64,000 nucleotides of DNA, taken from Wenjunlia tyrosinilytica. GTDB lineage: Bacteria; Actinomycetota; Actinomycetes; Streptomycetales; Streptomycetaceae. Below are positions 10,747-22,532 of the stretch, one piece after another (the stretch's first letter is position 1; each line of letters begins with the position of its first letter). The translations under genes were made by a program, and so were the position numbers. The notes beneath the pieces were generated by a model. That model searched no databases, was not told where the DNA came from, and saw only the letters and a list, made by a program, of their open reading frames with translations. The stretch spans positions 1 through 64,000 of the forward strand of contig NZ_BMMS01000021.1 of assembly GCF_014646055.1 (NCBI RefSeq). Reading direction: 5' to 3'.

Positions 10747-12417
10747 CTACGACGTGGGGGCGAAGGCGGTCACGCGGGGCCGGCCCTCCAGGGTGGTCAC
10801 CGCGATGGACAGGGCGAGGTTCCCCCGGACAACCACACGGTAGTACTCCGGGGAGACCGCGGTCCCCCCGGGGAAGCGGCCCCCCTTGACCGGTGTGCCG
10901 GAGTCGATCGGTATCCGGTAGAAGCGGCTGCGCGCGGAGGTGTCCCGGCTGCCCACGGCGGCGACCACGGCGCCGCTCCTGACGCCGACCACCTGGAGGG
11001 ACTGCCCTTCGGGGGCGATCTTGCGGTGCCACTTCTCCTTGCCCGTGGACAGGTCGAAGGCCGCCACCGTGTGGGAGCGGCCCTGCGTCAGCGCCAGACC
11101 CACGGTGGCGATCATGGTCGAGCCGTCGAAGGTGTAGTTCGGCAGGCTGTTGAACGAGCTGTCGGCCTCGGGGAGCTTGCCGAACGGCTGGGCGACGGGA
11201 ATCCGAGTGCCGGGCCGGCCCTTGGAGTCGATCCGCATGATGCCGCCGCGGGCGGCCGCGCTGCCCGGATTGACCATCGCCACGGCGGGCCTGGCCGACA
11301 CGACGGTCGCCTCGGCCCCCGGCCCGCCCTCCACCCGGTACTTCCACGCGGCCTTGGCCTTGTCGCGCTCACCGAGGTCGAGCCCGAATATGGTGGTCCC
11401 CTTGTCGCACTGCTCGGCGACCACCACGGCGGACGGCGCGGCCTTCCCCTCCAGGGGGCAGAACTTCGAACCGCCGACCTTCCAGTACCGCTTGCCCTTG
11501 TTGAGGCCGTAGGAGAAGAGCATGTGCGCGGTCGCCGCGTAGACGCGGTTGCGCTTGGCGTCCACGGCGACCGAGGGGTCGCTGAAGCCGGTGTCGGTGT
11601 CGGGGGCGACGTCGTGCGACCACTTGACCCGGCCGGTGCGCATGTCGGCCACGACGAGGAGGGTGCACGGGGAGGTGGTCGAGCTCCCGTCAGGGCGGTA
11701 CAGCACGGCGCCGAGGCCCTCGGAGGTCGCGTTGTCGGACATCTCGCACGGCTTGGCGCCGGAGACCGGGGGCTTGAGCTCCCACTGGCGGCGCCCGGTG
11801 CGCATGTCGTACGAGACGAGGCGGGAGACATCCCCCACCACGACGCTGCGCCTGCCCACCCACTCGCCGATGAGGCTGGTCCGGTTCTGCGGTCCGTGCG
11901 TGGGTCCGGACTCGGTCTTCCACAGCGCCGAGCGGTCGGCGGCGACGTCGAACTTCCCGGCGGCGGTGAGGCGCCGACCGTCGGGCCTGGCGGCCTCCTT
12001 CTTCCGGCCCTTGCCGCCGTCGCCGTCGCCGTCGCCGGACATGAAGTACACGGTTCCGACGCCTGTCAGGGCCAGCGCGACGACACCGGCGACGACACCG
12101 AGGATCACTCCGCGGCGGCGGCCACGGGGAGCGGGGGTGCCGGGGACGGGGGACCCGGGCTGCTGCGGATACGGCTGCGCCTGCGGGTCGCCCGCGTAGG
12201 GGTTGTAGCCGCCCGCCCAGGGCTGCTGGGGTGGGGGCGGCAGGGGCTGCTGCCCCTGGGGGTGGGGCTGCTGGGCCCGCGGCGATGACGGCGGCGGCTG
12301 GGCGTAAGGGTTCCACTGCGGCTGGACCGGCTGCGCGGGCAGCGCCGGGGGCGGCACCTGCGGATAGCCGTAGCCCGGCTGCTGGTTCCGGCTCATGTCT
12401 GTCGGCTCGTCGGCCAT
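10747..12417 (-). CDS. Membrane-anchored PQQ-like beta-propeller protein
   Basis: Function unknown. The 556-residue product has a Pro/Gln/Tyr-rich cytoplasmic tail (residues 1-98), a basic PRGRRR stop and one membrane helix (about 104-126). A large extracytoplasmic domain follows with repeated segments such as YDMRTGRRQWEL, ADMRTGRVKWSH and FDLSTGKEKWHR. These are the blades of a PQQ/quinoprotein-type beta-propeller. No PQQ-enzyme catalytic motif is evident, so binding or scaffold roles are likelier. It sits where the ESX secretion cluster lies in other streptomycetes and is divergent from a second Pro/Gln-tailed membrane gene. Confidence 0.88.
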   Translation of the reverse strand: MADEPTDMSRNQQPGYGYPQVPPPALPAQPVQPQWNPYAQPPPSSPRAQQPHPQGQQPLPPPPQQPWAGGYNPYAGDPQAQPYPQQPGSPVPGTPAPRGRRRGVILGVVAGVVALALTGVGTVYFMSGDGDGDGGKGRKKEAARPDGRRLTAAGKFDVAADRSALWKTESGPTHGPQNRTSLIGEWVGRRSVVVGDVSRLVSYDMRTGRRQWELKPPVSGAKPCEMSDNATSEGLGAVLYRPDGSSTTSPCTLLVVADMRTGRVKWSHDVAPDTDTGFSDPSVAVDAKRNRVYAATAHMLFSYGLNKGKRYWKVGGSKFCPLEGKAAPSAVVVAEQCDKGTTIFGLDLGERDKAKAAWKYRVEGGPGAEATVVSARPAVAMVNPGSAAARGGIMRIDSKGRPGTRIPVAQPFGKLPEADSSFNSLPNYTFDGSTMIATVGLALTQGRSHTVAAFDLSTGKEKWHRKIAPEGQSLQVVGVRSGAVVAAVGSRDTSARSRFYRIPIDSGTPVKGGRFPGGTAVSPEYYRVVVRGNLALSIAVTTLEGRPRVTAFAPTS

Positions 12418-12750
12418 GTCCCCATCCGAATCCGCGCTGCGGGCGCGCGGCTGCTGTCGATGCTGGTGTGAAAGGTCGGTGCTGGTGCAGGGTCAGCCGT
12501 TCGTCATCCCACGGGGGTTGGCATGGACGTCAAGGACCGCCAAGCGGCCAGAGACAATACCGCCCCTCCCGGGCCCCGCCGCGGGGTGGAGGGGGCAGGA
12601 CCTGCGGAGATCTCGTGCAGCTCCGTGAAGAGCGTTGCGGATCCGCCGCCCGCGGTGATGTATTCGCACGGCCGCGAGGGCGTGTACCACCGGCCGGAAT
12701 CACCCGCGGACCCGCCATGTAGCGTATTGCGGCCGACCACGAAGAAGGGC
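12418..12750. other. Divergent intergenic region with two-tier hairpin
   Basis: 333 bases between the divergent beta-propeller and small membrane protein genes, so both promoters should lie here. I see a hairpin with outer stem CCCCTCC (12563-12569)/GGAGGGG (12588-12594) and inner stem CCCCG (12574-12578)/CGGGG (12582-12586). A TTGACG hexamer on the minus strand is visible near 12530-12540, but I find no convincing -10 partner. No coding signal is apparent. Confidence 0.5.
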
Positions 12751-13608
12751 ATGCGTCCCCCCATGAGCCACCACCAACCGCAGCCTCCGCAGCAGGGATT
12801 CGGGCCGCCTCCGATGTACGGCGGCCCTCAGCAGCCGCATCCTCAGCCGAATCCCTACCAGCAGCCGCAGCCGCAGGGCGGCGGGTGGGGTCCGCAGCCT
12901 CCGCAAGCCCCGCCGCACCAGGCGCCGCCCCAGACCCCGCAGTTCCAGCCGCCGGGTCCCCCGCAGCCCGCACCCCGGCGCCGCACCGGCCTGATCCTCG
13001 GTGTGCTCGCCGGCGCCACCGCCCTTCTCGTTGTGGCGGGCATCGTGGGCCTGCCCCTGCTCGACGACTACCTCCACGGCCCCGTATACAGGATGCGCGC
13101 GGCCAAGGAGGTGAGGATCGACGGCAAGCCGTTCTCCCTGCAGAAGACGACCGGCAAGGCCTCGAAGAAGTACCAGGCGGAGGGCGGCCTGACCCCGCTG
13201 AACGCCAACTACACGCCGAGCGGGCTGGATCGGCCGCTCTATGTCGTCACCGGAGCCTACGGTGACATATCGGACCCCGCGAAGGCGATGAAGCGCCAGC
13301 TCAAGGACGGTGTGCGCGGCAGGGGTTTCGTGCCCGTCGACCAGGCCAGGACGTTCGACCCGAAGTCCAAGAACGCCGACGCCAAGGACGTCAGGGTCAG
13401 CTGCAACCTCTACTCCGCCAAGGAGGACCTCTCCCAGGAGAACGCCTCCCAGTTCGCCATCTGCGCGTGGGCCAACAACAGCACTCAGGGAATCGTCGCC
13501 TACTTCCCCGGAACGATCGAGCTGATGCCGGACATCGGCGACGATCTGCGCCAGTACGCGGACGCGACGATCGAGCTGCGCGATCAGATGCAGGTCGCGG
13601 CGGACTGA
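12751..13608 (+). CDS. Pro/Gln-tailed single-pass membrane protein
   Basis: Function unknown. The 285-residue product begins with a Pro/Gln/Gly-rich cytoplasmic tail (about residues 5-75), then APRRR and a membrane helix (about 80-102). A 180-residue extracytoplasmic domain follows, with two cysteines (in VSCNLYSA and FAICAW) that could pair. I chose the ATG at 12751 because GAAGAAGGG lies just before it; ATG 12763 is the alternative. The layout matches the neighbouring beta-propeller protein and suggests a shared membrane complex. No family is recognised. Confidence 0.82.
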   Translation: MRPPMSHHQPQPPQQGFGPPPMYGGPQQPHPQPNPYQQPQPQGGGWGPQPPQAPPHQAPPQTPQFQPPGPPQPAPRRRTGLILGVLAGATALLVVAGIVGLPLLDDYLHGPVYRMRAAKEVRIDGKPFSLQKTTGKASKKYQAEGGLTPLNANYTPSGLDRPLYVVTGAYGDISDPAKAMKRQLKDGVRGRGFVPVDQARTFDPKSKNADAKDVRVSCNLYSAKEDLSQENASQFAICAWANNSTQGIVAYFPGTIELMPDIGDDLRQYADATIELRDQMQVAAD

Positions 13609-13950
13609 CGGCGCGAGCCTCCGGCCGTTCGGGCCGAGCCCGTCCACACCCCGCGGCCCGTCACCCGGTGGTGCCGCCCGCGTCCTCAACAGCTCGTTAC
13701 GGACCTGTTGCACGGTCCACCGAAACGCTTCGTCAGGCGTGAATCAGGGCTTCCACATGCCGTTTCGCGCCTGACGAGGCGTGGTGCGGCCTGCCGTGGT
13801 GTCTCCACGGATGATTAGGCTGGGGCATACAGCGGCAGGACCACTCAGGGGGCACAGGGCCGCTGAAAACGGGAGGGCTCCCGCCGCGCGCATGCCACGT
13901 GCCGGATGTGGCGTGGGCGGAGAAGCAGTAGCAGTACAGGAGGCGCAGCA
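13609..13950 (+). other. Intergenic region with interlocked inverted repeats
   Basis: 342 bases without a gene. Two pairs of inverted repeats interlock at 13721-13777 (reported separately). A possible -10 element TAGGCT is at 13816-13821, but a matching -35 is not evident. A strong AGGAGG ribosome site at 13938-13943 serves the following GTG at 13951. Confidence 0.5.
13721..13777 (+). repeat. Two interlocking inverted-repeat pairs (possible pseudoknot)
   Basis: CGAAACG (13721-13727) is complementary to CGTTTCG (13761-13767). TCGTCAGGCG (13730-13739) is complementary to CGCCTGACGA (13768-13777). The order is A-B-A'-B', so both stems together would form an H-type pseudoknot; either alone is a simple hairpin. 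It lies 113 bases past the small membrane protein and 174 bases before the ATPase start. It could be a terminator or 5'-UTR element. Confidence 0.6.
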
Positions 13951-16338
13951 GTGACCAGCGATCGGGACGACGTCTACGAGGGTGACAACACCCCCGAAGA
14001 GGACGAGGAGTGGTCCGGCGCCGATTACACACCTCCGGCTTGGTACATGCAGAGCGCGAGTGCCGCCCCGGTGGCGCCCCCGCCCCCGGCCACGGCGCCG
14101 ACTCCGCCTCCTGCGCCGTCGGCGCCCGCGCCGGTCGCACCGGCTCCGTCGGACAGTGCGGTGGGGCGGACGCAGCGACGTGACGAGGGGACGGTTCGCT
14201 TCGGTGCGCTGCGCGCGCCGGAGACAAAGCCGGAGTCCGGGTCCGGGACATCGGCCGAGGAGCCCCGGTCCGAACCGGCACCGCGCCGGGACGACGGCAC
14301 CATGCGCTTCGGGGCCTTCCAACCCCCGTCGCCCAAGCCCGAGTCGGAGCCCGCCCAGGCGTCCGGCGGTGACGTCGGCGAGGACGCCGCCGCGGTGGGC
14401 AGCGGGAGGACGGAGCCGGGGCCCGCTCCGGTAGGGGCGCCTCTGCGTGACGACGGGACCGTGCGCTTCGGGGCGCTGCGTGCTCCCAAGCCGGAGGCTG
14501 CAAGTGGGTCGGCGGCTGGGAGTGCATCGGCGGCTGAGAGTGGATCGGCAACTGGGGGCGGGTCGGCGGCGGAGCCGAAGGCTGAGCCCTTCGACGAGCC
14601 GAAGCACGACCCCGAGTCGGCGCCGGAGCCCGCGCCCCTGCCCATGGGTGACGCCTCGTCGCCCCCTGCGATCCCCGCGCCCGCGGCACCGGCCTGGTCG
14701 GATCCGCCCGCAGCGCCCTCCGACGCTCCGCAGGATGCTCCCTGGAACCAGCATGCGGTCCCGCCGCTCCCCCCGCAGTTCCAGGCCGCCGAGCCGTCCG
14801 CCGCCGCACCGCGGCAGTCGGCGCACCCGCACGCGGCGCACCCGCATCCGGCGCCTCAGCAGCCCGCGCCGCCCGCGTTCCCGCACCAGCAGACACCGCC
14901 GCCGGTTCAGTCCCAGCCGCAGGACCAGCCGCAGGGCTGGCCGCCCGTTGCCTCACCGCAGCAGACACAGCAGCCGCAGGCCCAGCCGCAGGAGGGTTGG
15001 CCCGGGCAGGCGCAGCAGCAGCCTCAGCAGCAGCCCGCCGCGCACCCGCAGGCTCCGCCGCGTGGGCAACAGCCGCCCGCCCAACCGCAGCAGACACAGC
15101 AGCCGCAGGCCCAGCCGACGCCGCCGGTCGATCCTCGCCAGGGTGGCTGGCCCGCGCCTCAGCAGGCGCACACGGGTGCTCCCCTTGGCTACACCGCTGC
15201 CGTCGAGCTGTCCTCGGACCGGCTGCTGCGCAAGCAGCCGCAGCCGAAGAGGAACCCCAGCCCGCGCTTCAAGATCGGGGGAAAGGCCGCGGAGGCGGAG
15301 CGCCGAAGGAAGTTGGAGCTCATTCGCACCCCGGTGCTCAGCTGTTACCGCATCGCCGTGATCAGCCTCAAGGGCGGGGTGGGCAAGACCACGACGACCA
15401 CGGCCCTCGGCTCGACGCTGGCAACGGAGCGCCAGGACAAGGTCATCGCGATCGACGCCAACCCGGACGCGGGCACGCTGGGGCGCCGGGTGCGCCGTGA
15501 GACCGGCGCGACGATCCGCGATCTGGTGACCGCGATCCCTTACCTGAACAGCTACATGGACATCCGGCGGTTCACCTCGCAGGCCCCCTCGGGCCTGGAG
15601 ATCCTCGCCAACGATGTCGACCCGGCGGTCTCGACGACGTTCAACGACGAGGACTACCGCAGCGTCATCGACGTCCTCGGCCGCCAGTACCCGATCATCC
15701 TCACCGACTCGGGAACGGGCCTGCTGTACAGCGCGATGCGCGGGGTGCTGGATCTCGCCGATCAGTTGATCATCATCTCCACGCCGAGCGTGGACGGCGC
15801 GAGCAGCGCCAGTACGACGTTGGACTGGCTCTCGGCGCACGGCTACGCGGAGCTCGTCCAGCGTTCGATCACGGTCATCTCGGGGGTGCGGGAGACCGGC
15901 AAGATCATCAAGGTGGAGGACATAGTCTCCCACTTCGAGACCCGCTGCCGCGGTGTCGTGGTCGTGCCGTTCGACGAGCACCTGTCGGCCGGTGCGGAGT
16001 TGGACCTGACGATGATGCGGCCGAAGACGCGGGACGCGTACTTCAATCTCGCGGCGATGGTGGCCGAGGACTTCGCCCGCGCACAGCAGGCCCAAGGCCT
16101 GTGGACGGCCGACGGCAACTCCCAGCCCCCGCACCTGCCCCCGCCGATGCCCTACCAGGCCGACCCGCGGACGGGCACACCCCAGGCGCCCAACCCCGGC
16201 TGGCCCCAGCAGCCCGGGCAGCCCTGGCAGCACCCCCCGGCCCCGGGCTCCTATGGCTACCCCCAGGCCAACCAGCCGGGAAACGACCCGGATCAGCCCC
16301 AGCAACAACCCGGGTACGGCTACCCGCCGCAGCAGTAG
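13951..16338 (+). CDS. MinD/EspI-like ATPase with long Pro/Gln-rich N-terminus
   Basis: A 795-residue protein resembling the MinD-like ATPases found in ESX/type VII secretion loci. Residues 1-420 are low-complexity Pro/Ala/Gln sequence containing three copies of a motif around [10 protein letters not shown] (about residues 77-88, 113-123, 167-176). The ATPase domain starts near 465, with the deviant Walker A KGGVGKTT at 474-481 and LTDSGTG further on. The C-terminal 75 residues are again Pro/Gln/Gly-Tyr-rich. The GTG at 13951 has an ideal AGGAGG site 7 bases upstream. No EsxA/B or EccC gene is in the window, so its partner is unclear. Confidence 0.88.
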
Positions 16339-16450: not shown

Positions 16451-16485
16451 GCCGCCGACTCACGGGCGCCGCAGCCCGTGGCGGC
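16451..16485 (-). terminator. Hairpin at the 3' end of ribF
   Basis: Inner stem CACGGGC (16461-16467)/GCCCGTG (16474-16480), flanked by GCCGCC (16451-16456) and a complementary GGCGGC ending at 16485. It abuts the ribF stop codon. It may act with the larger terminator at 16346-16387; support is moderate. Confidence 0.4.
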
Positions 16486-17438
16486 TACTGGGCGTCGAAG
16501 GTGTCCACCAGTTCGCGGGCGCGTTTGACGTCGGCGGCCATGCGTTCCAGGAGGTCGTCGATGCTCGCGAACTTTTCCTGGGTGCGCAGGTACGCCAGGA
16601 ATTCGACGGCCGCGTGGAGGCCGTACAGGTCCAGGCCCACCCGGTCGATCGCGTAGGCCTCGACCGTTCTGGTCCGGCCGTCGAAGGTCGGGTTGGTGCC
16701 GACCGAGATCGCGGCGGGCATGCGTTCGCCGTCCGTGATCAGCCAGCCCGCGTAGACGCCGTCGGCGGGGATGGCGGTGTGCGGCAGAGTCTCCACGTTG
16801 GCGGTGGGGAAGCCGAGTTCGCGGCCGCGCTGGGCTCCGCGCACGACGACGCCCTCCACTCGGTGGGGGCGGCCCAGCACCTCCATGGCGCCCTCGACGT
16901 CGCCCTCGCCGACCAGACGGCGGGTGAGGGTCGAGGAGAACGGGGTGCCGCCGCCCGCCTCGCCGCGCATCACCAGGTCGATGATCTCGACCTCGTAGTC
17001 GTACCTGGTGCCGAGGTCGGCGAGCAGCTCCACATCTCCGGCGGCCTTGTGGCCGAAGGTGAAGTTGGGGCCCTCGACGACCGCCTTGGCGTGCAGCGCG
17101 TCCACGAGCACCTGCCGGACGAACTCCTCCGGCGGGAGCAGGGAGAACTCGGCCGTGAAGGGGAGGATCAGCAACGCGTCCACCCCCAGCTCGGCCATGA
17201 GCTCGGCGCGGCGGTGGTGGGCGGCCAGGAGCGGGGGGTGGCTGCCGGGGCGGACCACCTCGCTGGGGTGCGGGTCGAAGGTGACGACGACGGCCGGGAC
17301 GCCATGGTGGCGTGCCAGCTCCACGGTTCTGCCGATGATCAGCTGGTGACCGCGGTGGACGCCGTCGTAGGAGCCGATGGTGACGACGCTGCGTCCCCAG
17401 TCCTCGGGAACGTCTGCCAAGCCCCGCCAGCGCTGCAC
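16485..17438 (-). CDS. ribF: Bifunctional riboflavin kinase/FAD synthetase
   Basis: Converts riboflavin to FMN and then FAD. The 317-residue protein has the N-terminal FAD synthetase nucleotidyltransferase motif GSYDGVHRGHQ (about residues 22-32) and VTFDPHPSEV. The C-terminal riboflavin kinase signature is GFPTANVE, then GVYAGWL and NPTFDG. The GTG at 17438 follows a GGAGGAG ribosome site; the longer frame upstream is not family-like. It lies downstream of truB, as in most actinobacteria, but is separated from it here by the protease-NTPase gene. Confidence 0.95.
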   Translation of the reverse strand: MQRWRGLADVPEDWGRSVVTIGSYDGVHRGHQLIIGRTVELARHHGVPAVVVTFDPHPSEVVRPGSHPPLLAAHHRRAELMAELGVDALLILPFTAEFSLLPPEEFVRQVLVDALHAKAVVEGPNFTFGHKAAGDVELLADLGTRYDYEVEIIDLVMRGEAGGGTPFSSTLTRRLVGEGDVEGAMEVLGRPHRVEGVVVRGAQRGRELGFPTANVETLPHTAIPADGVYAGWLITDGERMPAAISVGTNPTFDGRTRTVEAYAIDRVGLDLYGLHAAVEFLAYLRTQEKFASIDDLLERMAADVKRARELVDTFDAQ

Positions 17439-17546
17439 TGTGACCGCTCCTCCATGAAAACCACTTCGCATTGTGCAGGATCAAGACTGCCATGCTCGCA
17501 GGCCGCGTCCCGAACCGGCAGGCATCCCCGGAAGCAGTGTGCGACA

Positions 17547-20500
17547 TCACCCGACCCCGGCCGGGGCCTCGGCCGACCTGGAGAGGGTCTCCCATGTGCC
17601 TCGGGCGAACGCGGGTGAAACGGTCGCGAGCCGGCCCAGCCGCCGGTCGAGGTGGGCGGTGCCCTCGGGGGTGCGGCCCAGCAGGAGGGCGGCGCGGAGC
17701 ACCAGCTCGCGGGTGAGCGCGGCCGGGCGGCCCTGGACATGCTCGGCGGCGCCCTGGAGGACGGCGTCGAGGACGTCGACGTTCCGCTCGTGTTCGAGCA
17801 GGACGTCGAGGAGTTCCTGGCGCAGCGGGCGTGAGGCGCGCCCTCCCGGGGTGACGAGTACGGAGGCGAGGCAGCGGCGGACGGCCGGGGGCTGGTCGCG
17901 GACGAGGCCGGTGACGAGCGGCAGGAGGACGGCCCGGGCTTCGGGGCCCTGCTCGAGCCTGCGGTCGAGGTAGGCGGCGACGTGGACGGCGCCCTCGGGG
18001 CGCAGGTCGAGGTAGTCGCGGACCAGTTCCGCGGCGCGGCGGGACAGGGCGGGGGTGCGGACGTCGGCCAGCTCGCGCAGGACGTCGGCCACGGCGGCTC
18101 CGGGCTTCTCGAGCCGGGCCTGGAAGGCGGCGAGGACCTCTTCGGGGTGGGTGGACAGCGCGGCGCCGAGCGCGCTCGCGCAGAGGTTGGGGTCTGCGGC
18201 CTCGAACGCGGCCAGCGCCTGCGGAAGGTGCCGGGACCTGGTGGCGGGGTCGAGGACCAGGAGGGAGAGGGCGGCGCCGTGCACGGAGCAGTCGGTACTG
18301 CGGCCCAGCAGGATCTGGGCGGCGTAGCGCAGCAGGCGGCGGTCCGCGTCGGTCGTGATGTGCGGGGCGGCCCTCAGGCCGTAGGCACCGGCGGCGACAT
18401 GGCGTTCGAGGCGCTCGTCGTGGGACCAGCGGTCGACGGCTCGGCAGACGGCGGAGGGCTCGTCCTCGGCGAGGGCGGCGAGCAGTTCGTCGGCGCGGGG
18501 GTGGGCGGCGGCGACGAGTGCCTCGGTGAGGTCGTCGACGGCGCGGCGGCGGTGCGTGTGCAGCAGGGCCTGGGTGGCGGCGGCGACGGTGGCGGCCGCC
18601 TGGAGGCGGCGCTCGTCGTCGAACCACTCGCACAGGAGCGGCTGAACGGCGCCTGGGTCGTCGGCGAGATACCGGCCGGCGGCGTCGAGGAAGCGGTCCT
18701 CCCCCGCTTCCGAGGGCGGGGCGTCGGCGGGGAGGAGCAGGCGGAGCAGTTCCACCCGTTCGGGGAGGGGCAGGGGCAGCGCCATCCAGAACCGGGGCTC
18801 GAAGCGGCGCAGGCGGGGCGCGTTCTGGAAGCCTCCGATCCTGACGGAGTGGACCGTGATCTGCCGGGCCAGGAGGTGGAGGACGTCGAGATACCGCTCG
18901 GCGTGGGGCAGCTTGAGGAGCGTTCCGGCGAGGAGGTGGGCGGCCCACCAGGCGGATTCCTCGGGGCATGTCCCGTCGCCGTCGAGGGCCTGCGCCAGGC
19001 GTTCCAGGCGGGGGGTGAGAGCGGTGGGGCCCTGGGTCTCGTCGAGGGTGAGGAGTGCTTGGACGACGGGTCCGGCGCGGTGGCGGGGGACGGGGGCGGT
19101 TGGCGGTGCCGGCCGCGTTTCCGGGGGTGGTGGGGCCTTTCGGCCGCGGCGGAAGCGGGAGGGCTTCGGGGGCAGGGGGTCGGGGGACGGCGGGGCCGGA
19201 GGTTCGGCGAGGGCGAGGGTGTCCAGGGCCTCGTCGACGTCGAGGTGCAGGCCCTGGAGCCAGTCGGCGAGTTCCTCGTGGGTGAAGCGGTAGCCGCTGC
19301 CCGCGGGGGTCAGCAGCCTTTCGGTGAGCACAGCGCAGGCCCAGCCGGTACGCCAGGGGAAGAGTTCCTCGAAGGACTCGGCGTCCAGACCGCCCTGTCC
19401 GGGGCCGAGGCAGCGGCGGGCGGCCTCGTGCACCCGGCCGGTGACCTTCAGCGCCAGCATGCGCAGTGGCGTCGGGCTTGGGCTCGCCGTGGATTCGGCG
19501 GACAGGCGGAAGGCGATACGGAGGGCCGCGAGGTCGAGGTGGGCGGTGAACAGCTCGCCACGGCTGGGGGTGGCGTCCTTGGGGAGGTCGGGGACCGCTT
19601 GGCGCAGGTCGGCCAGCAGGCGCAGGGCGAGGGGGTGAGCCTCGTTGTGGCGGGTGAGGGCGTGGGCGGGGACGCCGAGGCGGGTGCGGACGCGTTCGGC
19701 CTGGGTTGCGGAGAGGGCGCCGACGCGGACGCAGGCGGGCAGCCAGGAGGAGGGCGGGCCGCCGTTGCGGGGCCGGTACAGCATCGGGGCGGGGAAGAGC
19801 GCCCCGGCGTGCTCCCAGTATTCGGGGCGGCAGGCGATGGCCAGCCGTACGCCGGATGTGCGCAGCCAGTCCGCGGTGCCGGACGTCCAGTCGGTGAGGC
19901 CCAGGGCCGGGGTGGGCATCTCCTCGGGGCCGTCGAGGACGACGAGGAGGGGGCGCCCTCCGGCCTCGGCGAGGCGGCCGACGGCGTCCGGGCAGGCGCC
20001 CTCGGGAGGCAGGGGGACGCAGGAAGTGGCGGCGACGATGCGGCCTGCGGCGCTGAGGGCCCGCTCGACGGCGTCCTTGAGGCCGTGGTCGTCCGGGTGG
20101 AGATCGGCACCGCGCAGCCACACGGTGGGGGCGGGGTTCTGGCCTTGGGCGCGGCGGATGGTGAGGGCGGCGAGCTCGGTGGTTCGGCCGCAGCCGGGGT
20201 CGCCCACGAGGCCGAGGACAAGGACGCCGGTGGCGGTCGGGGTGTCGTCGGGGGTGGGGACGTCGTTGGCGGTGTCTTTGGTGTGGTGGTTGGTGGTGTG
20301 CTTGGTGGTGCGCTTGGTGGTGTCTCTGGCGGTGTGGTTGGCGGTGTCGTTGGCGGTGCGGTCCGGGGTGTCGGTGACAGCGGGGTCGAGGAAGTGGTCG
20401 AGTTCTTCTTCGATGTCGGCTCGCTCCGAGCGTTCGACGACGGGTTGGAGACCGACGGTGGTGGCGGCGAGCTGGAGGGCACCGGCGAGGTTGAGGTCGG

Positions 20501-21122
20501 GGCCGTAGGCGGGGACGGTGGCCTCGTTGCGGGCCAGGAGGCGGGCCATGGCGCGGGCGGTGACCTGGCGCAGGGGGACGGCGAAGCCGCCGTCGGGGCG
20601 GCTGTCGGGCCCCGCGTGGAGGGCGGTGCCGAGGACCGCGAGGACGGCGCCGGTGTCCCGGTCGATGACGGGGCTGCCGGAGAGTTCGGGGTTGAGCCGG
20701 ATGCCGCCGGGGACCTCGGCGGTGAACTCCATGACGTCAGCGATGAGGTGGAAGCGGTCGGTGGCGGTGTAGGTGACGGTGGCCGTGCCGAGGATGAGCG
20801 CTTCGGCGTCGGGGTCGGCGCCCAGGACGATGTGGCGGGCGCCGCCGGCGGCGGCGATGGGGAGCGGGGATGCGGGAATGCCCTCGGTGCGGACGAGGGC
20901 GATGTCGAAGTCGGGGAGGGGGACGACGGCGGAGGCGTCGATGATGCGGGACTCGCCGGGGGCGGGACCGTGGAGGACGAGTCGGGCGAGGCCGTCGACG
21001 GCTTCGTGGCTGGTGATGACCGTGCCGATGGTGTCGGCGAGGAATCCCGTGCCGCGGGGGCGGCCTGCGAGGTCGCAGATGCGCACCAGCGCCTCGCTCG
21101 CACGGTCGTGCCGCACCGCCAT
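17547..21122 (-). CDS. Trypsin-like protease / NACHT-like STAND NTPase / helical-repeat fusion
   Basis: A 1191-residue multidomain protein, likely a signal-transducing sensor. Residues 10-195 match a trypsin-fold serine protease with a plausible triad: His39 (TSHEAV), Asp73 (DFDIAL) and Ser148 (LSGSPV). A Thr/Asn/His-rich linker spans about 249-299. The NTPase follows: Walker A-like GDPGCGRTT (307-315), Walker B VVLDGPEE (about 394-401) and the NACHT-type ACRP motif (430-433). The invariant Walker lysine is Arg313. The C-terminal 500 residues are Leu/Ala-rich helical repeats like HEAT/TPR. The ATG at 21122 has a GGGGAGG site. Such fusions occur in bacterial conflict (Avs/STAND) systems; that role is inference. 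Confidence 0.85.
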   Translation of the reverse strand: MAVRHDRASEALVRICDLAGRPRGTGFLADTIGTVITSHEAVDGLARLVLHGPAPGESRIIDASAVVPLPDFDIALVRTEGIPASPLPIAAAGGARHIVLGADPDAEALILGTATVTYTATDRFHLIADVMEFTAEVPGGIRLNPELSGSPVIDRDTGAVLAVLGTALHAGPDSRPDGGFAVPLRQVTARAMARLLARNEATVPAYGPDLNLAGALQLAATTVGLQPVVERSERADIEEELDHFLDPAVTDTPDRTANDTANHTARDTTKRTTKHTTNHHTKDTANDVPTPDDTPTATGVLVLGLVGDPGCGRTTELAALTIRRAQGQNPAPTVWLRGADLHPDDHGLKDAVERALSAAGRIVAATSCVPLPPEGACPDAVGRLAEAGGRPLLVVLDGPEEMPTPALGLTDWTSGTADWLRTSGVRLAIACRPEYWEHAGALFPAPMLYRPRNGGPPSSWLPACVRVGALSATQAERVRTRLGVPAHALTRHNEAHPLALRLLADLRQAVPDLPKDATPSRGELFTAHLDLAALRIAFRLSAESTASPSPTPLRMLALKVTGRVHEAARRCLGPGQGGLDAESFEELFPWRTGWACAVLTERLLTPAGSGYRFTHEELADWLQGLHLDVDEALDTLALAEPPAPPSPDPLPPKPSRFRRGRKAPPPPETRPAPPTAPVPRHRAGPVVQALLTLDETQGPTALTPRLERLAQALDGDGTCPEESAWWAAHLLAGTLLKLPHAERYLDVLHLLARQITVHSVRIGGFQNAPRLRRFEPRFWMALPLPLPERVELLRLLLPADAPPSEAGEDRFLDAAGRYLADDPGAVQPLLCEWFDDERRLQAAATVAAATQALLHTHRRRAVDDLTEALVAAAHPRADELLAALAEDEPSAVCRAVDRWSHDERLERHVAAGAYGLRAAPHITTDADRRLLRYAAQILLGRSTDCSVHGAALSLLVLDPATRSRHLPQALAAFEAADPNLCASALGAALSTHPEEVLAAFQARLEKPGAAVADVLRELADVRTPALSRRAAELVRDYLDLRPEGAVHVAAYLDRRLEQGPEARAVLLPLVTGLVRDQPPAVRRCLASVLVTPGGRASRPLRQELLDVLLEHERNVDVLDAVLQGAAEHVQGRPAALTRELVLRAALLLGRTPEGTAHLDRRLGRLATVSPAFARGTWETLSRSAEAPAGVG
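20280..20363 (-). repeat. 12-base tandem repeat inside the STAND gene linker
   Basis: Seven units of 12 bases, on the plus strand of the form GG(T/C)GGTGnnnTT or close variants, run from 20280 to 20363. Because 12 is a multiple of 3 they encode a repeating Thr-rich tetrapeptide linker between protease and NTPase. Unit number is therefore free to change without frameshift. Confidence 0.85.
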
Positions 21123-21632: not shown

Positions 21633-22532
21633 CTACACGAACACTGCCAGGATGCGGGCTTGGCCCGTGCGTTCTTCCACCAGGGCCAGGAAGCGTTCTT
21701 CCGGGCCGAAGACGGCGATGGGGCCATCGCCCAAGCCCTCGACCTTCAGACGGACGCCGTTGACCAGCAGGCGGGCCTGTTCCGCGTCCACATCCCACCT
21801 CGGGAAGGCCGCCGCCGCGGCCTCGCTGATGGGCATGTACGAGAACGTCTCCTCCAGCTCGTCCAGCGACTTCGCCATCCCGAGTGTGTACGGACCGACC
21901 CGGGTGCGGCGGAGCGCCGTCAGGTGGCCGCCCACACCCAGCCCCGCGCCCAAGTCACGGGCCAGGGCCCGGATGTACGTGCCGGACGAGCACTCCACCG
22001 TCACATCCAGGTCCAGCACCTCGGTGCCGTCCGCCGGCGCCACCACCCGCACCTCGTGCACCGTGAACGACGAGACGGTGACCGGCCTGGCCGCCAGTTC
22101 CACCTCCTCGCCGGAGCGCACCCTGCTGTACGACCGCTTTCCGTCGATCTTGATCGCGCTGATCTTCGACGGCACCTGCTGGATGTCCCCGGTCAGCTCC
22201 GCGATGCCCTTGTCGATGGCCTCCCGCGTGACGCCGGTCGCCGGGACGGTCTCGGTGACCTCGCCCTCGGCGTCGTCGGTGATCGTCGTCCGGCCCAGCC
22301 GGATCGTCGCGTCGTACGCCTTCTCCGTCAGCGCCAGGTGCCCCAGCAGCCGGGTGGCCTTCTCGACGCCGAGCACCAGCACACCCGTCGCCATCGGGTC
22401 CAGCGTGCCAGCGTGGCCGACCCTGCGGGTGCCCGCGAGGCGGCGCGTGCGCGCCACGACGCCGTGCGAGGTGATCCCGGCAGGCTTGTCGACGATGACA
22501 AGGCCGTCGGGCCCCGTTCCCTTGCGTTTCAT
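21633..22532 (-). CDS. truB: tRNA pseudouridine(55) synthase
   Basis: Makes pseudouridine 55 in the T-loop of tRNAs. The 299-residue protein has the N-terminal DKPAGITSH segment, the TruB catalytic motif GHAGTLDPMATGVL (Asp at about residue 46) and the later SGTYIRALARDLG motif. The ATG at 22532 shares one base with the nrnA stop (TGATG), so the two are translationally coupled. It is part of the nusA-infB-rbfA-nrnA-truB block. Confidence 0.96.
   Translation of the reverse strand: MKRKGTGPDGLVIVDKPAGITSHGVVARTRRLAGTRRVGHAGTLDPMATGVLVLGVEKATRLLGHLALTEKAYDATIRLGRTTITDDAEGEVTETVPATGVTREAIDKGIAELTGDIQQVPSKISAIKIDGKRSYSRVRSGEEVELAARPVTVSSFTVHEVRVVAPADGTEVLDLDVTVECSSGTYIRALARDLGAGLGVGGHLTALRRTRVGPYTLGMAKSLDELEETFSYMPISEAAAAAFPRWDVDAEQARLLVNGVRLKVEGLGDGPIAVFGPEERFLALVEERTGQARILAVFV

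What the first reader, a model, noticed from the sequence alone, without database searches (positions are those of the whole stretch)
17547..21122. Single-gene protease-STAND NTPase fusion placed inside the translation block
The sequence shows a trypsin-like domain with a plausible His39/Asp73/Ser148 triad, a NACHT-like NTPase with Walker A, Walker B and ACRP motifs, and a long helical-repeat C-terminus. Protease-STAND fusions are known from bacterial conflict systems, where repeats sense a ligand and the NTPase activates the protease. Here the gene sits between truB and ribF with no other effector or partner. It could be a stand-alone immune or stress sensor, or a domesticated regulator of translation genes.
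Basis: partly seen in the sequence, partly recalled or inferred. Interest (0 to 1): 0.8.

Follow-up and report, generated by a model that had tools for sequence, protein, structure and literature searches.

The report
Streptomyces NLR-like protein with dead protease
A gene wedged between two housekeeping genes in most Streptomyces relatives encodes a protein built like animal inflammasome receptors (NLRs), but its protease-like front end has lost the active-site histidine in every relative checked, so it is probably a long-resident scaffold or sensor and not a protein-cutting immune weapon.

Summary
The gene is real: a 1191-residue minus-strand ORF (17547-21122) between truB and ribF. The architecture is confirmed by a good AlphaFold model. 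Residues 1-198 are HtrA/trypsin fold (Z 19), 204-795 a NACHT module like NLRP3/NOD2 (Z 20), and 684-1182 a HEAT-like solenoid.

The "plausible triad" is wrong. Ungapped alignment to HhoA, Deg1 and HtrA proteins puts the catalytic His opposite Glu40, not His39. In 53 intact homologues that position is Glu, Gln or Asp, never His; Asp73 is usually Gly and Ser148 is Ala, Pro, Thr or Val in 30. The Walker A lysine is Arg in 53/53, while the Walker B acids are invariant.

The gene is not a roaming immune cassette. It is found, nearly always single-copy, in 124 of 150 Streptomycetaceae genomes; all 63 loci examined lie beside truB, 60 with ribF downstream. Its tree matches the TruB+RibF tree (26 of 29 strong splits). 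Seventeen of 20 non-carrier loci show truB directly followed by ribF. It is under purifying selection (dN/dS about 0.28) yet lost or frame-broken in some lineages.

Best reading: a vertically inherited, dispensable pseudoprotease-NACHT-HEAT switch or scaffold. Its ligand and pathway are unknown; protease-less immunity is not excluded.

The parts
17547..21122 (-). CDS of protein X (1191 aa): pseudoprotease - NACHT - HEAT
   Evidence: ORF and codon-position GC; 124 of 150 family genomes carry it
20529..21122 (-). residues 1-198: trypsin/HtrA-fold domain, catalytic site degenerate
   Evidence: Pfam Trypsin_2 E 2.8e-7; VIA Z 19.2 Rv3671c and Deg1, 19.1 MamO; HMMER vs HhoA E 3.7e-9
21003..21005 (-). 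Glu40 codon, at the position of the catalytic His
   Evidence: ungapped HMMER alignment to HhoA/Deg1 and hhalign to HtrA homologues; Glu 50, Gln 2, Asp 1 of 53 intact homologues
20904..20906 (-). Asp73 codon, at the position of the catalytic Asp
   Evidence: Asp in 12 of 53, Gly in 38
20679..20681 (-). Ser148 codon, at the position of the catalytic Ser
   Evidence: Ser in 23 of 53, Ala in 24, Pro 3, Thr 2, Val 1
20232..20351 (-). residues 258-297: Thr/Asp-rich linker, disordered in the model
   Evidence: pLDDT < 50
19773..20225 (-). residues 300-450: NACHT-type nucleotide-binding domain
   Evidence: NLRP3/NOD2/NLRC4 match Z 19-20; NACHT matched by 21 of 26 homologues, more than any other Pfam family
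20181..20204 (-). Walker A GDPGCGRT (307-314) with Arg instead of Lys
   Evidence: Arg in 53 of 53 intact homologues
19917..19946 (-). Walker B LVVLDGPEEM (393-402)
   Evidence: Asp397, Glu400, Glu401 in 53 of 53
19203..19745 (-). residues 460-640: helical/winged-helix part of the NLR-type module
   Evidence: covered by the NLRP3/NOD2 alignment 204-795; most conserved part, mean identity 0.61
17577..19073 (-). residues 684-1182: HEAT/ARM-like alpha-solenoid, putative sensor or docking arm
   Evidence: domain-only AF2 pLDDT 94.8; Foldseek PP2A-A, karyopherins, AP2
21636..22532 (-). truB, conserved upstream neighbour
   Evidence: Pfam TruB_N/TruB_C; found in all 63 loci
16485..17471 (-). ribF, conserved downstream neighbour
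   Evidence: NF004160 above cut-off; found downstream in 60 of 63 loci

Best explanation
X is a cytoplasmic NLR-architecture protein (pseudoprotease - NACHT - HEAT solenoid) that entered the truB-ribF gap in an ancestor within Streptomycetaceae and has been inherited vertically as a resident, non-essential host protein. Proposed working: the HEAT solenoid binds a host ligand or partner; binding changes the nucleotide state or oligomerisation of the NACHT module; the N-terminal trypsin-fold domain does not cut but binds a peptide or protein in its old substrate cleft and thereby recruits or holds a client. Shown: domain architecture, degenerate catalytic site, invariant Arg in Walker A with intact Walker B acids, vertical inheritance, fixed slot, purifying selection, recurrent loss. 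Inferred: the switch/scaffold mechanism, slow or absent hydrolysis, the nature of ligand and client.
For: Fold: AF2, VIA matches to NLRP3/NOD2/NLRC4 for 204-795 and to HtrA-type proteases and the MamO pseudoprotease for 1-198, HEAT-like C-terminus. No catalytic His: HMMER vs HhoA/Deg1, hhalign vs HtrA homologues, counts. NTPase motifs: Arg313 53/53, Asp397/Glu400/Glu401 53/53. Conservation and slot: 124 of 150 genomes, truB upstream in 63 of 63 and ribF downstream in 60 of 63, same strand. Empty sites in 17 non-carriers and a C-terminal remnant in one. Tree congruence: Mantel r 0.69 against 0.75 for TruB vs RibF, 26 of 29 strong splits shared. Constraint: pooled dN/dS of 13 close pairs 0.195 protease domain, 0.245 NTPase, 0.267 C-term, TruB 0.178. 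Contrast: the canonical trypsin-NACHT type of this genome occurs in 60 of 101 genomes at up to 6 copies.
Against: No biochemical or genetic data. The frame is broken in 11 of 63 loci, so in some lineages the gene may be decaying. NLR architecture is typical of immunity, and effector-less bNACHT proteins do defend (PMC12169576).
Confidence: 0.55

Rival explanations
1. X is a core-genome immune sensor that works without proteolysis: phage ligand binding by the HEAT arm makes the NACHT module oligomerise, and the oligomer or an unlinked partner recruited by the pseudoprotease stops growth.
For: NLR architecture; effector-less clade 14 bNACHT proteins are reported to defend (PMC12169576); nearly all trypsin domains fused to vWA components of ternary conflict systems are reported to be inactive (PMC7159879).
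Against: Vertical inheritance and fixed housekeeping slot; C-terminus about as conserved as the rest, not hypervariable (mean identity 0.54 against 0.51-0.61); no significant PADLOC match; none of nine flanking genes tested belongs to an evident defence system, their weak hits being to generic domains.
Confidence: 0.22
2. X regulates or assists the neighbouring functions (pseudouridylation, flavin synthesis or ribosome maturation), e.g. as a scaffold on ribosomes or TruB.
For: Invariant position next to truB and ribF on the same strand; the block holds rbfA, infB, nusA.
Against: truB-ribF runs without X in 17 related genomes; separate upstream gap of about 350 bp; proximity alone is weak evidence.
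Confidence: 0.12
3. One reading: an active trypsin-like protease switched on by the NACHT module.
For: Window retains His39, Asp73 and Ser148; Trypsin_2 above Pfam cut-off; canonical trypsin-NACHT proteins with complete triads exist in the same genome.
Against: His39 lies one residue before the catalytic His position, which is Glu40; no homologue has His there; Asp and Ser are lost in many.
Confidence: 0.06
4. X is a selfish or relic insertion in slow decay without present function.
For: Frame breaks in 11 of 63 loci against 0 of 62 truB, 0 of 60 ribF and 0 of 21 DHH; remnant in G072; absent from the one other genome of its genus.
Against: dN/dS about 0.28 overall, 0.20 in the pseudoprotease domain; invariant Walker B acids and Arg313; retained in 124 of 150 genomes.
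Confidence: 0.05

Closest known systems
Bacterial NACHT / NLR-related proteins (bNACHT; Kibby 2023, Conte 2025 PMC12169576)
   Same: tripartite order N-terminal module - NACHT - C-terminal helical sensor; NLR-type NACHT fold
   Different: Walker A Lys is Arg in all homologues; vertically inherited at one housekeeping slot; no demonstrated defence; N-terminal domain is a degenerate protease
Animal NLRs NLRP3, NOD2, NLRC4
   Same: NACHT module of residues 204-795 aligns at Z 19-20
   Different: HEAT-like solenoid where NLRs have leucine-rich repeats (animal side from general knowledge); trypsin-fold instead of CARD/PYD; 11-13% identity
Canonical trypsin-NACHT fusions of the same genome (L009, L013)
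   Same: N-terminal trypsin fold followed by NACHT in one chain
   Different: they keep the catalytic His (TAAH), GMSGAA Ser motif and GxxGSGK[ST], occur as tandem genes and in multiple copies
MamO and other HtrA-fold pseudoproteases (PMC4794232)
   Same: HtrA/trypsin fold kept under selection after loss of catalysis; VIA Z 19.1 to MamO
   Different: MamO is a magnetosome protein with metal-binding function; not fused to NACHT
Inactive trypsin domains of vWA-MoxR ternary conflict systems (PMC7159879)
   Same: trypsin-fold domains reported as mostly inactive, proposed peptide-binding or dominant-negative
   Different: fused to vWA proteins with MoxR partners; X has neither vWA nor MoxR beside it
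CARD-NLR-like LypABC of Caulobacter (PMC13236601)
   Same: trypsin-like and NLR-like modules; an immune-type system co-opted for a host process
   Different: three separate genes, active peptidases required; drives lysis for gene transfer agents

Membership tests
Bacterial NACHT / NLR-related (bNACHT) | NLR-type NACHT fold | tested here: met
   VIA Z 20.1 to NLRP3 (6npy_A, 415 residues, 4.4 A), 19.3 NOD2, 18.8 NLRC4
Bacterial NACHT / NLR-related (bNACHT) | Pfam NACHT above curated cut-off | tested here: inconclusive
   window core 16.6 bits against 26.7; 21 of 26 homologues match NACHT, best E 1e-7
Bacterial NACHT / NLR-related (bNACHT) | Walker A GxxGxGK[ST] | tested here: not met
   Arg at the Lys position in 53 of 53 intact homologues
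Bacterial NACHT / NLR-related (bNACHT) | Walker B with following acids | tested here: met
   Asp397, Glu400, Glu401 invariant in 53 of 53
Bacterial NACHT / NLR-related (bNACHT) | tripartite N-module / NACHT / C-sensor | tested here: met
   models and fold searches
Bacterial NACHT / NLR-related (bNACHT) | protects against phage | not testable with these tools
   needs a plaque assay
Trypsin-like (S1) serine protease | trypsin/HtrA double-barrel fold | tested here: met
   VIA Z 19.2; HMMER E 3.7e-9 to HhoA
Trypsin-like (S1) serine protease | catalytic His | tested here: not met
   Glu40 in its place; never His in 53 homologues
Trypsin-like (S1) serine protease | catalytic Asp and Ser | tested here: inconclusive
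   present in the window copy, absent in most homologues (Asp 12 of 53, Ser 23 of 53)
AVAST/Avs and other catalogued defence systems | significant match to a defence-system model | tested here: not met
   best PADLOC E 0.0063, in the helical repeats only
vWA-MoxR ternary conflict systems | MoxR and vWA partner genes alongside | tested here: not met
   flanks are translation and RNA genes, none MoxR or vWA by Pfam

The most novel reading that the evidence does not exclude
A whole bacterial lineage domesticated an inflammasome-like receptor: an ancestral immune protease-NACHT protein lost its protease chemistry and its Walker lysine, became fixed in the translation operon, and now serves the host's own physiology (translation state, development or stress) as a nucleotide-gated scaffold.
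Probability: 0.25. Interest if true: 0.8.

Novelty: new variant of a known kind. Interest (0 to 1): 0.55.

Why it matters
NLR-like proteins in bacteria are studied as mobile antiphage receptors. This one behaves like a resident gene of the antibiotic-producing Streptomyces family: one slot, nearly always one copy, vertical descent, protease chemistry gone but fold kept under selection, and an arginine fixed in the nucleotide loop. If confirmed it gives a tractable case of immune-type machinery turned into a host protein, and a warning that 'trypsin-like peptidase' annotations in such fusions can be wrong. Deletion in a model Streptomyces would test this directly.

Tried and rejected
Mobile-element or prophage origin: no relative in viral contigs. 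RNA element in the 510-bp truB-X gap: no Rfam match. Membrane anchoring: maximum 19-residue hydropathy 1.2, no transmembrane segment. Sequence-only comparison of the 4-sequence profile with the canonical trypsin-NACHT pair aligned only part of the protease domain, so the relation was tested by fold. PDB search with the NACHT-core profile gave only generic P-loop matches. NG86 dN/dS over all pairs was inflated by GC3 saturation (TruB itself 0.36), so only close pairs were used. Relatives outside the family: only weak generic STAND hits in 198 genomes of the class; a missing hit is not proof of absence. Viral fold library: only proteases and polyproteins, no full-length match. Several genome-search runs with the full-length query failed; the 151-residue NACHT core was used instead. 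Literature: no open paper holds SCO5710 or SCO5717.
Full report
Observation. The ORF at 17547-21122 is on the minus strand and reads 1191 codons from ATG at 21122. Codon-position GC of 0.79/0.55/0.92 fits a coding frame of this 71.5% GC window. The block reads nusA - infB - DUF503 - rbfA - DHH - truB - X - ribF on one strand, with rpsO and pnp further on.

Domains. Pfam gives Trypsin_2 at residues 24-163 (E 2.8e-7) and nothing else above cut-off. A 42-sequence AlphaFold2 model has mean pLDDT 88 and pTM 0.77. VIA-align places residues 204-795 on the NACHT modules of NLRP3 (Z 20.1, 415 residues, 4.4 A), NOD2 (19.3) and NLRC4 (18.8), and residues 1-198 on HtrA-type proteases (Deg1 19.2, Rv3671c 19.2) and the MamO pseudoprotease (19.1). 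The C-terminal part modelled alone (pLDDT 94.8) is a paired-helix solenoid like PP2A-A and karyopherins. For the NTPase core, NACHT is the Pfam family hit by most homologues (21 of 26, best E 1e-7), though the window sequence itself scores below cut-off.

The triad. Residues 39, 73 and 148 are indeed H, D, S. But the HMMER alignment of the family profile to HhoA is ungapped over GTGF..D..G....T..VDG and puts the HhoA catalytic His (TNAHVVDG) opposite Glu40 (TSHEAVDG); Deg1 (TNYHVIRG) agrees, as does hhalign against HtrA homologues of the same genome. In 53 homologues with intact frames this position is Glu 50, Gln 2, Asp 1; Asp73 is Asp in 12 and Gly in 38; Ser148 is Ser in 23 and Ala in 24. 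On the housekeeping tree the Asp state changes about 8 times and the Walker Arg never. The trypsin fold is therefore kept without the chemistry. Canonical trypsin-NACHT proteins of the same genome (L009, L013) keep TAAH and GMSGAA, which shows that the degeneration is specific to X.

The P-loop. The Walker A is GxPGxGR[ST] or a close variant, with Arg in 53 of 53; Asp397, Glu400 and Glu401 are invariant. Arg for Lys usually impairs hydrolysis while sometimes allowing binding (general knowledge), so a slow or nucleotide-locked switch is inferred, not shown. Some NB-ARC/TPR STAND proteins of the family also have GR[ST].

Distribution and inheritance. The core was found in 124 of 150 Streptomycetaceae genomes, nearly always once, and in 9 of 17 genera; in 198 genomes of the class no strong match lay outside the family. 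Of 63 loci read, truB is upstream in all (only partly inside the fetched stretch in L100) and ribF is downstream in 60; in the other three it was not found in the stretch available, which ends right after X in L001. Of 20 non-carrier loci read, 17 have truB directly followed by ribF (gap about 90-330 bp), one (G072) holds a C-terminal remnant of X, one (G133) in fact holds the start of X at a contig end, and one (G073) has no readable flank. The one other genome of the window's genus is an empty-site genome. X and TruB+RibF distances correlate (Mantel r 0.69, 0 of 2000 permutations; TruB vs RibF control 0.75) and 26 of 29 well-supported housekeeping splits recur in the X tree. By contrast a canonical trypsin-NACHT core finds matches in 60 of 101 genomes, up to six per genome, at many places.

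Selection and loss. Pooled over 13 close pairs dN/dS is 0.195 (protease domain), 0.245 (NTPase), 0.267 (C-terminus), 0.277 (whole), against 0.178 for TruB. The frame is broken in 11 of 63 X loci and in none of 62 truB, 60 ribF and 21 DHH genes. By my estimate equal error per codon would give about six breaks in the neighbours, so part of the breaks are probably real losses; GC-rich linkers could still attract sequencing errors. X is thus constrained but dispensable.

Interpretation. The simplest account is a vertically inherited NLR-architecture protein whose N-terminal domain is a pseudoprotease, likely a binding module, coupled to a NACHT switch and a HEAT sensor arm. Precedents for parts of this exist: MamO (PMC4794232), the largely inactive trypsin domains of vWA ternary systems, proposed to bind peptides (PMC7159879), and an immune-like NLR system co-opted by Caulobacter for gene transfer agents (PMC13236601). 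An immune role without proteolysis remains open, because effector-less bNACHT proteins defend (PMC12169576). A link to translation rests on position only.

Limits. That X is SCO5710 in S. coelicolor is inferred from locus order (SCO5703 rimP and SCO5707 DUF503 are given in PMC3716926 and PMC7157823) and was not verified.

Noticed in passing
L009 and L013 (G000:C13:116-122 kb, same genome): Two tandem canonical trypsin-NACHT genes (about 1128 and 1074 aa) with catalytic His/Ser motifs and GxxGSGK Walker A; better candidates for protease-STAND immunity than the window gene.
   Followed up: partly
L139, L140, L141, L143: A conserved STAND/TPR family in Streptomycetaceae also carries Arg in place of the Walker A Lys (HGAPGSGRT), so K-to-R P-loops recur in STAND proteins of this family.
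   Followed up: no
window 10747-16338: Between ribF and rpsO lie a BamB-like PQQ protein, a Pro-rich protein and a MinD/ParA-like ATPase with a weak match to NCBIfam SCO5717_Nterm (growth-regulating ATPase); from memory this is where S. coelicolor has its ESX/type VII locus.
   Followed up: no
63 loci of X, e.g. L062, L070, L099, L105, L106, L114, L115: X is frame-broken in 11 of 63 loci while truB, ribF and DHH are never broken.
   Followed up: partly
window 20748-20774 (residues 117-125): Motif T-Y-x-A-T-D-R-F-H inside the pseudoprotease domain is strongly conserved (Tyr118 45 and His125 46 of 53) although catalytic residues are not; possible binding surface.
   Followed up: no
L187:2619-5870: 1083-aa fusion of a KGGTGR ParA-like ATPase, a TIR-like region, a NACHT domain and membrane helices in a related genome; the closest non-orthologous NACHT hit to X.
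   Followed up: no
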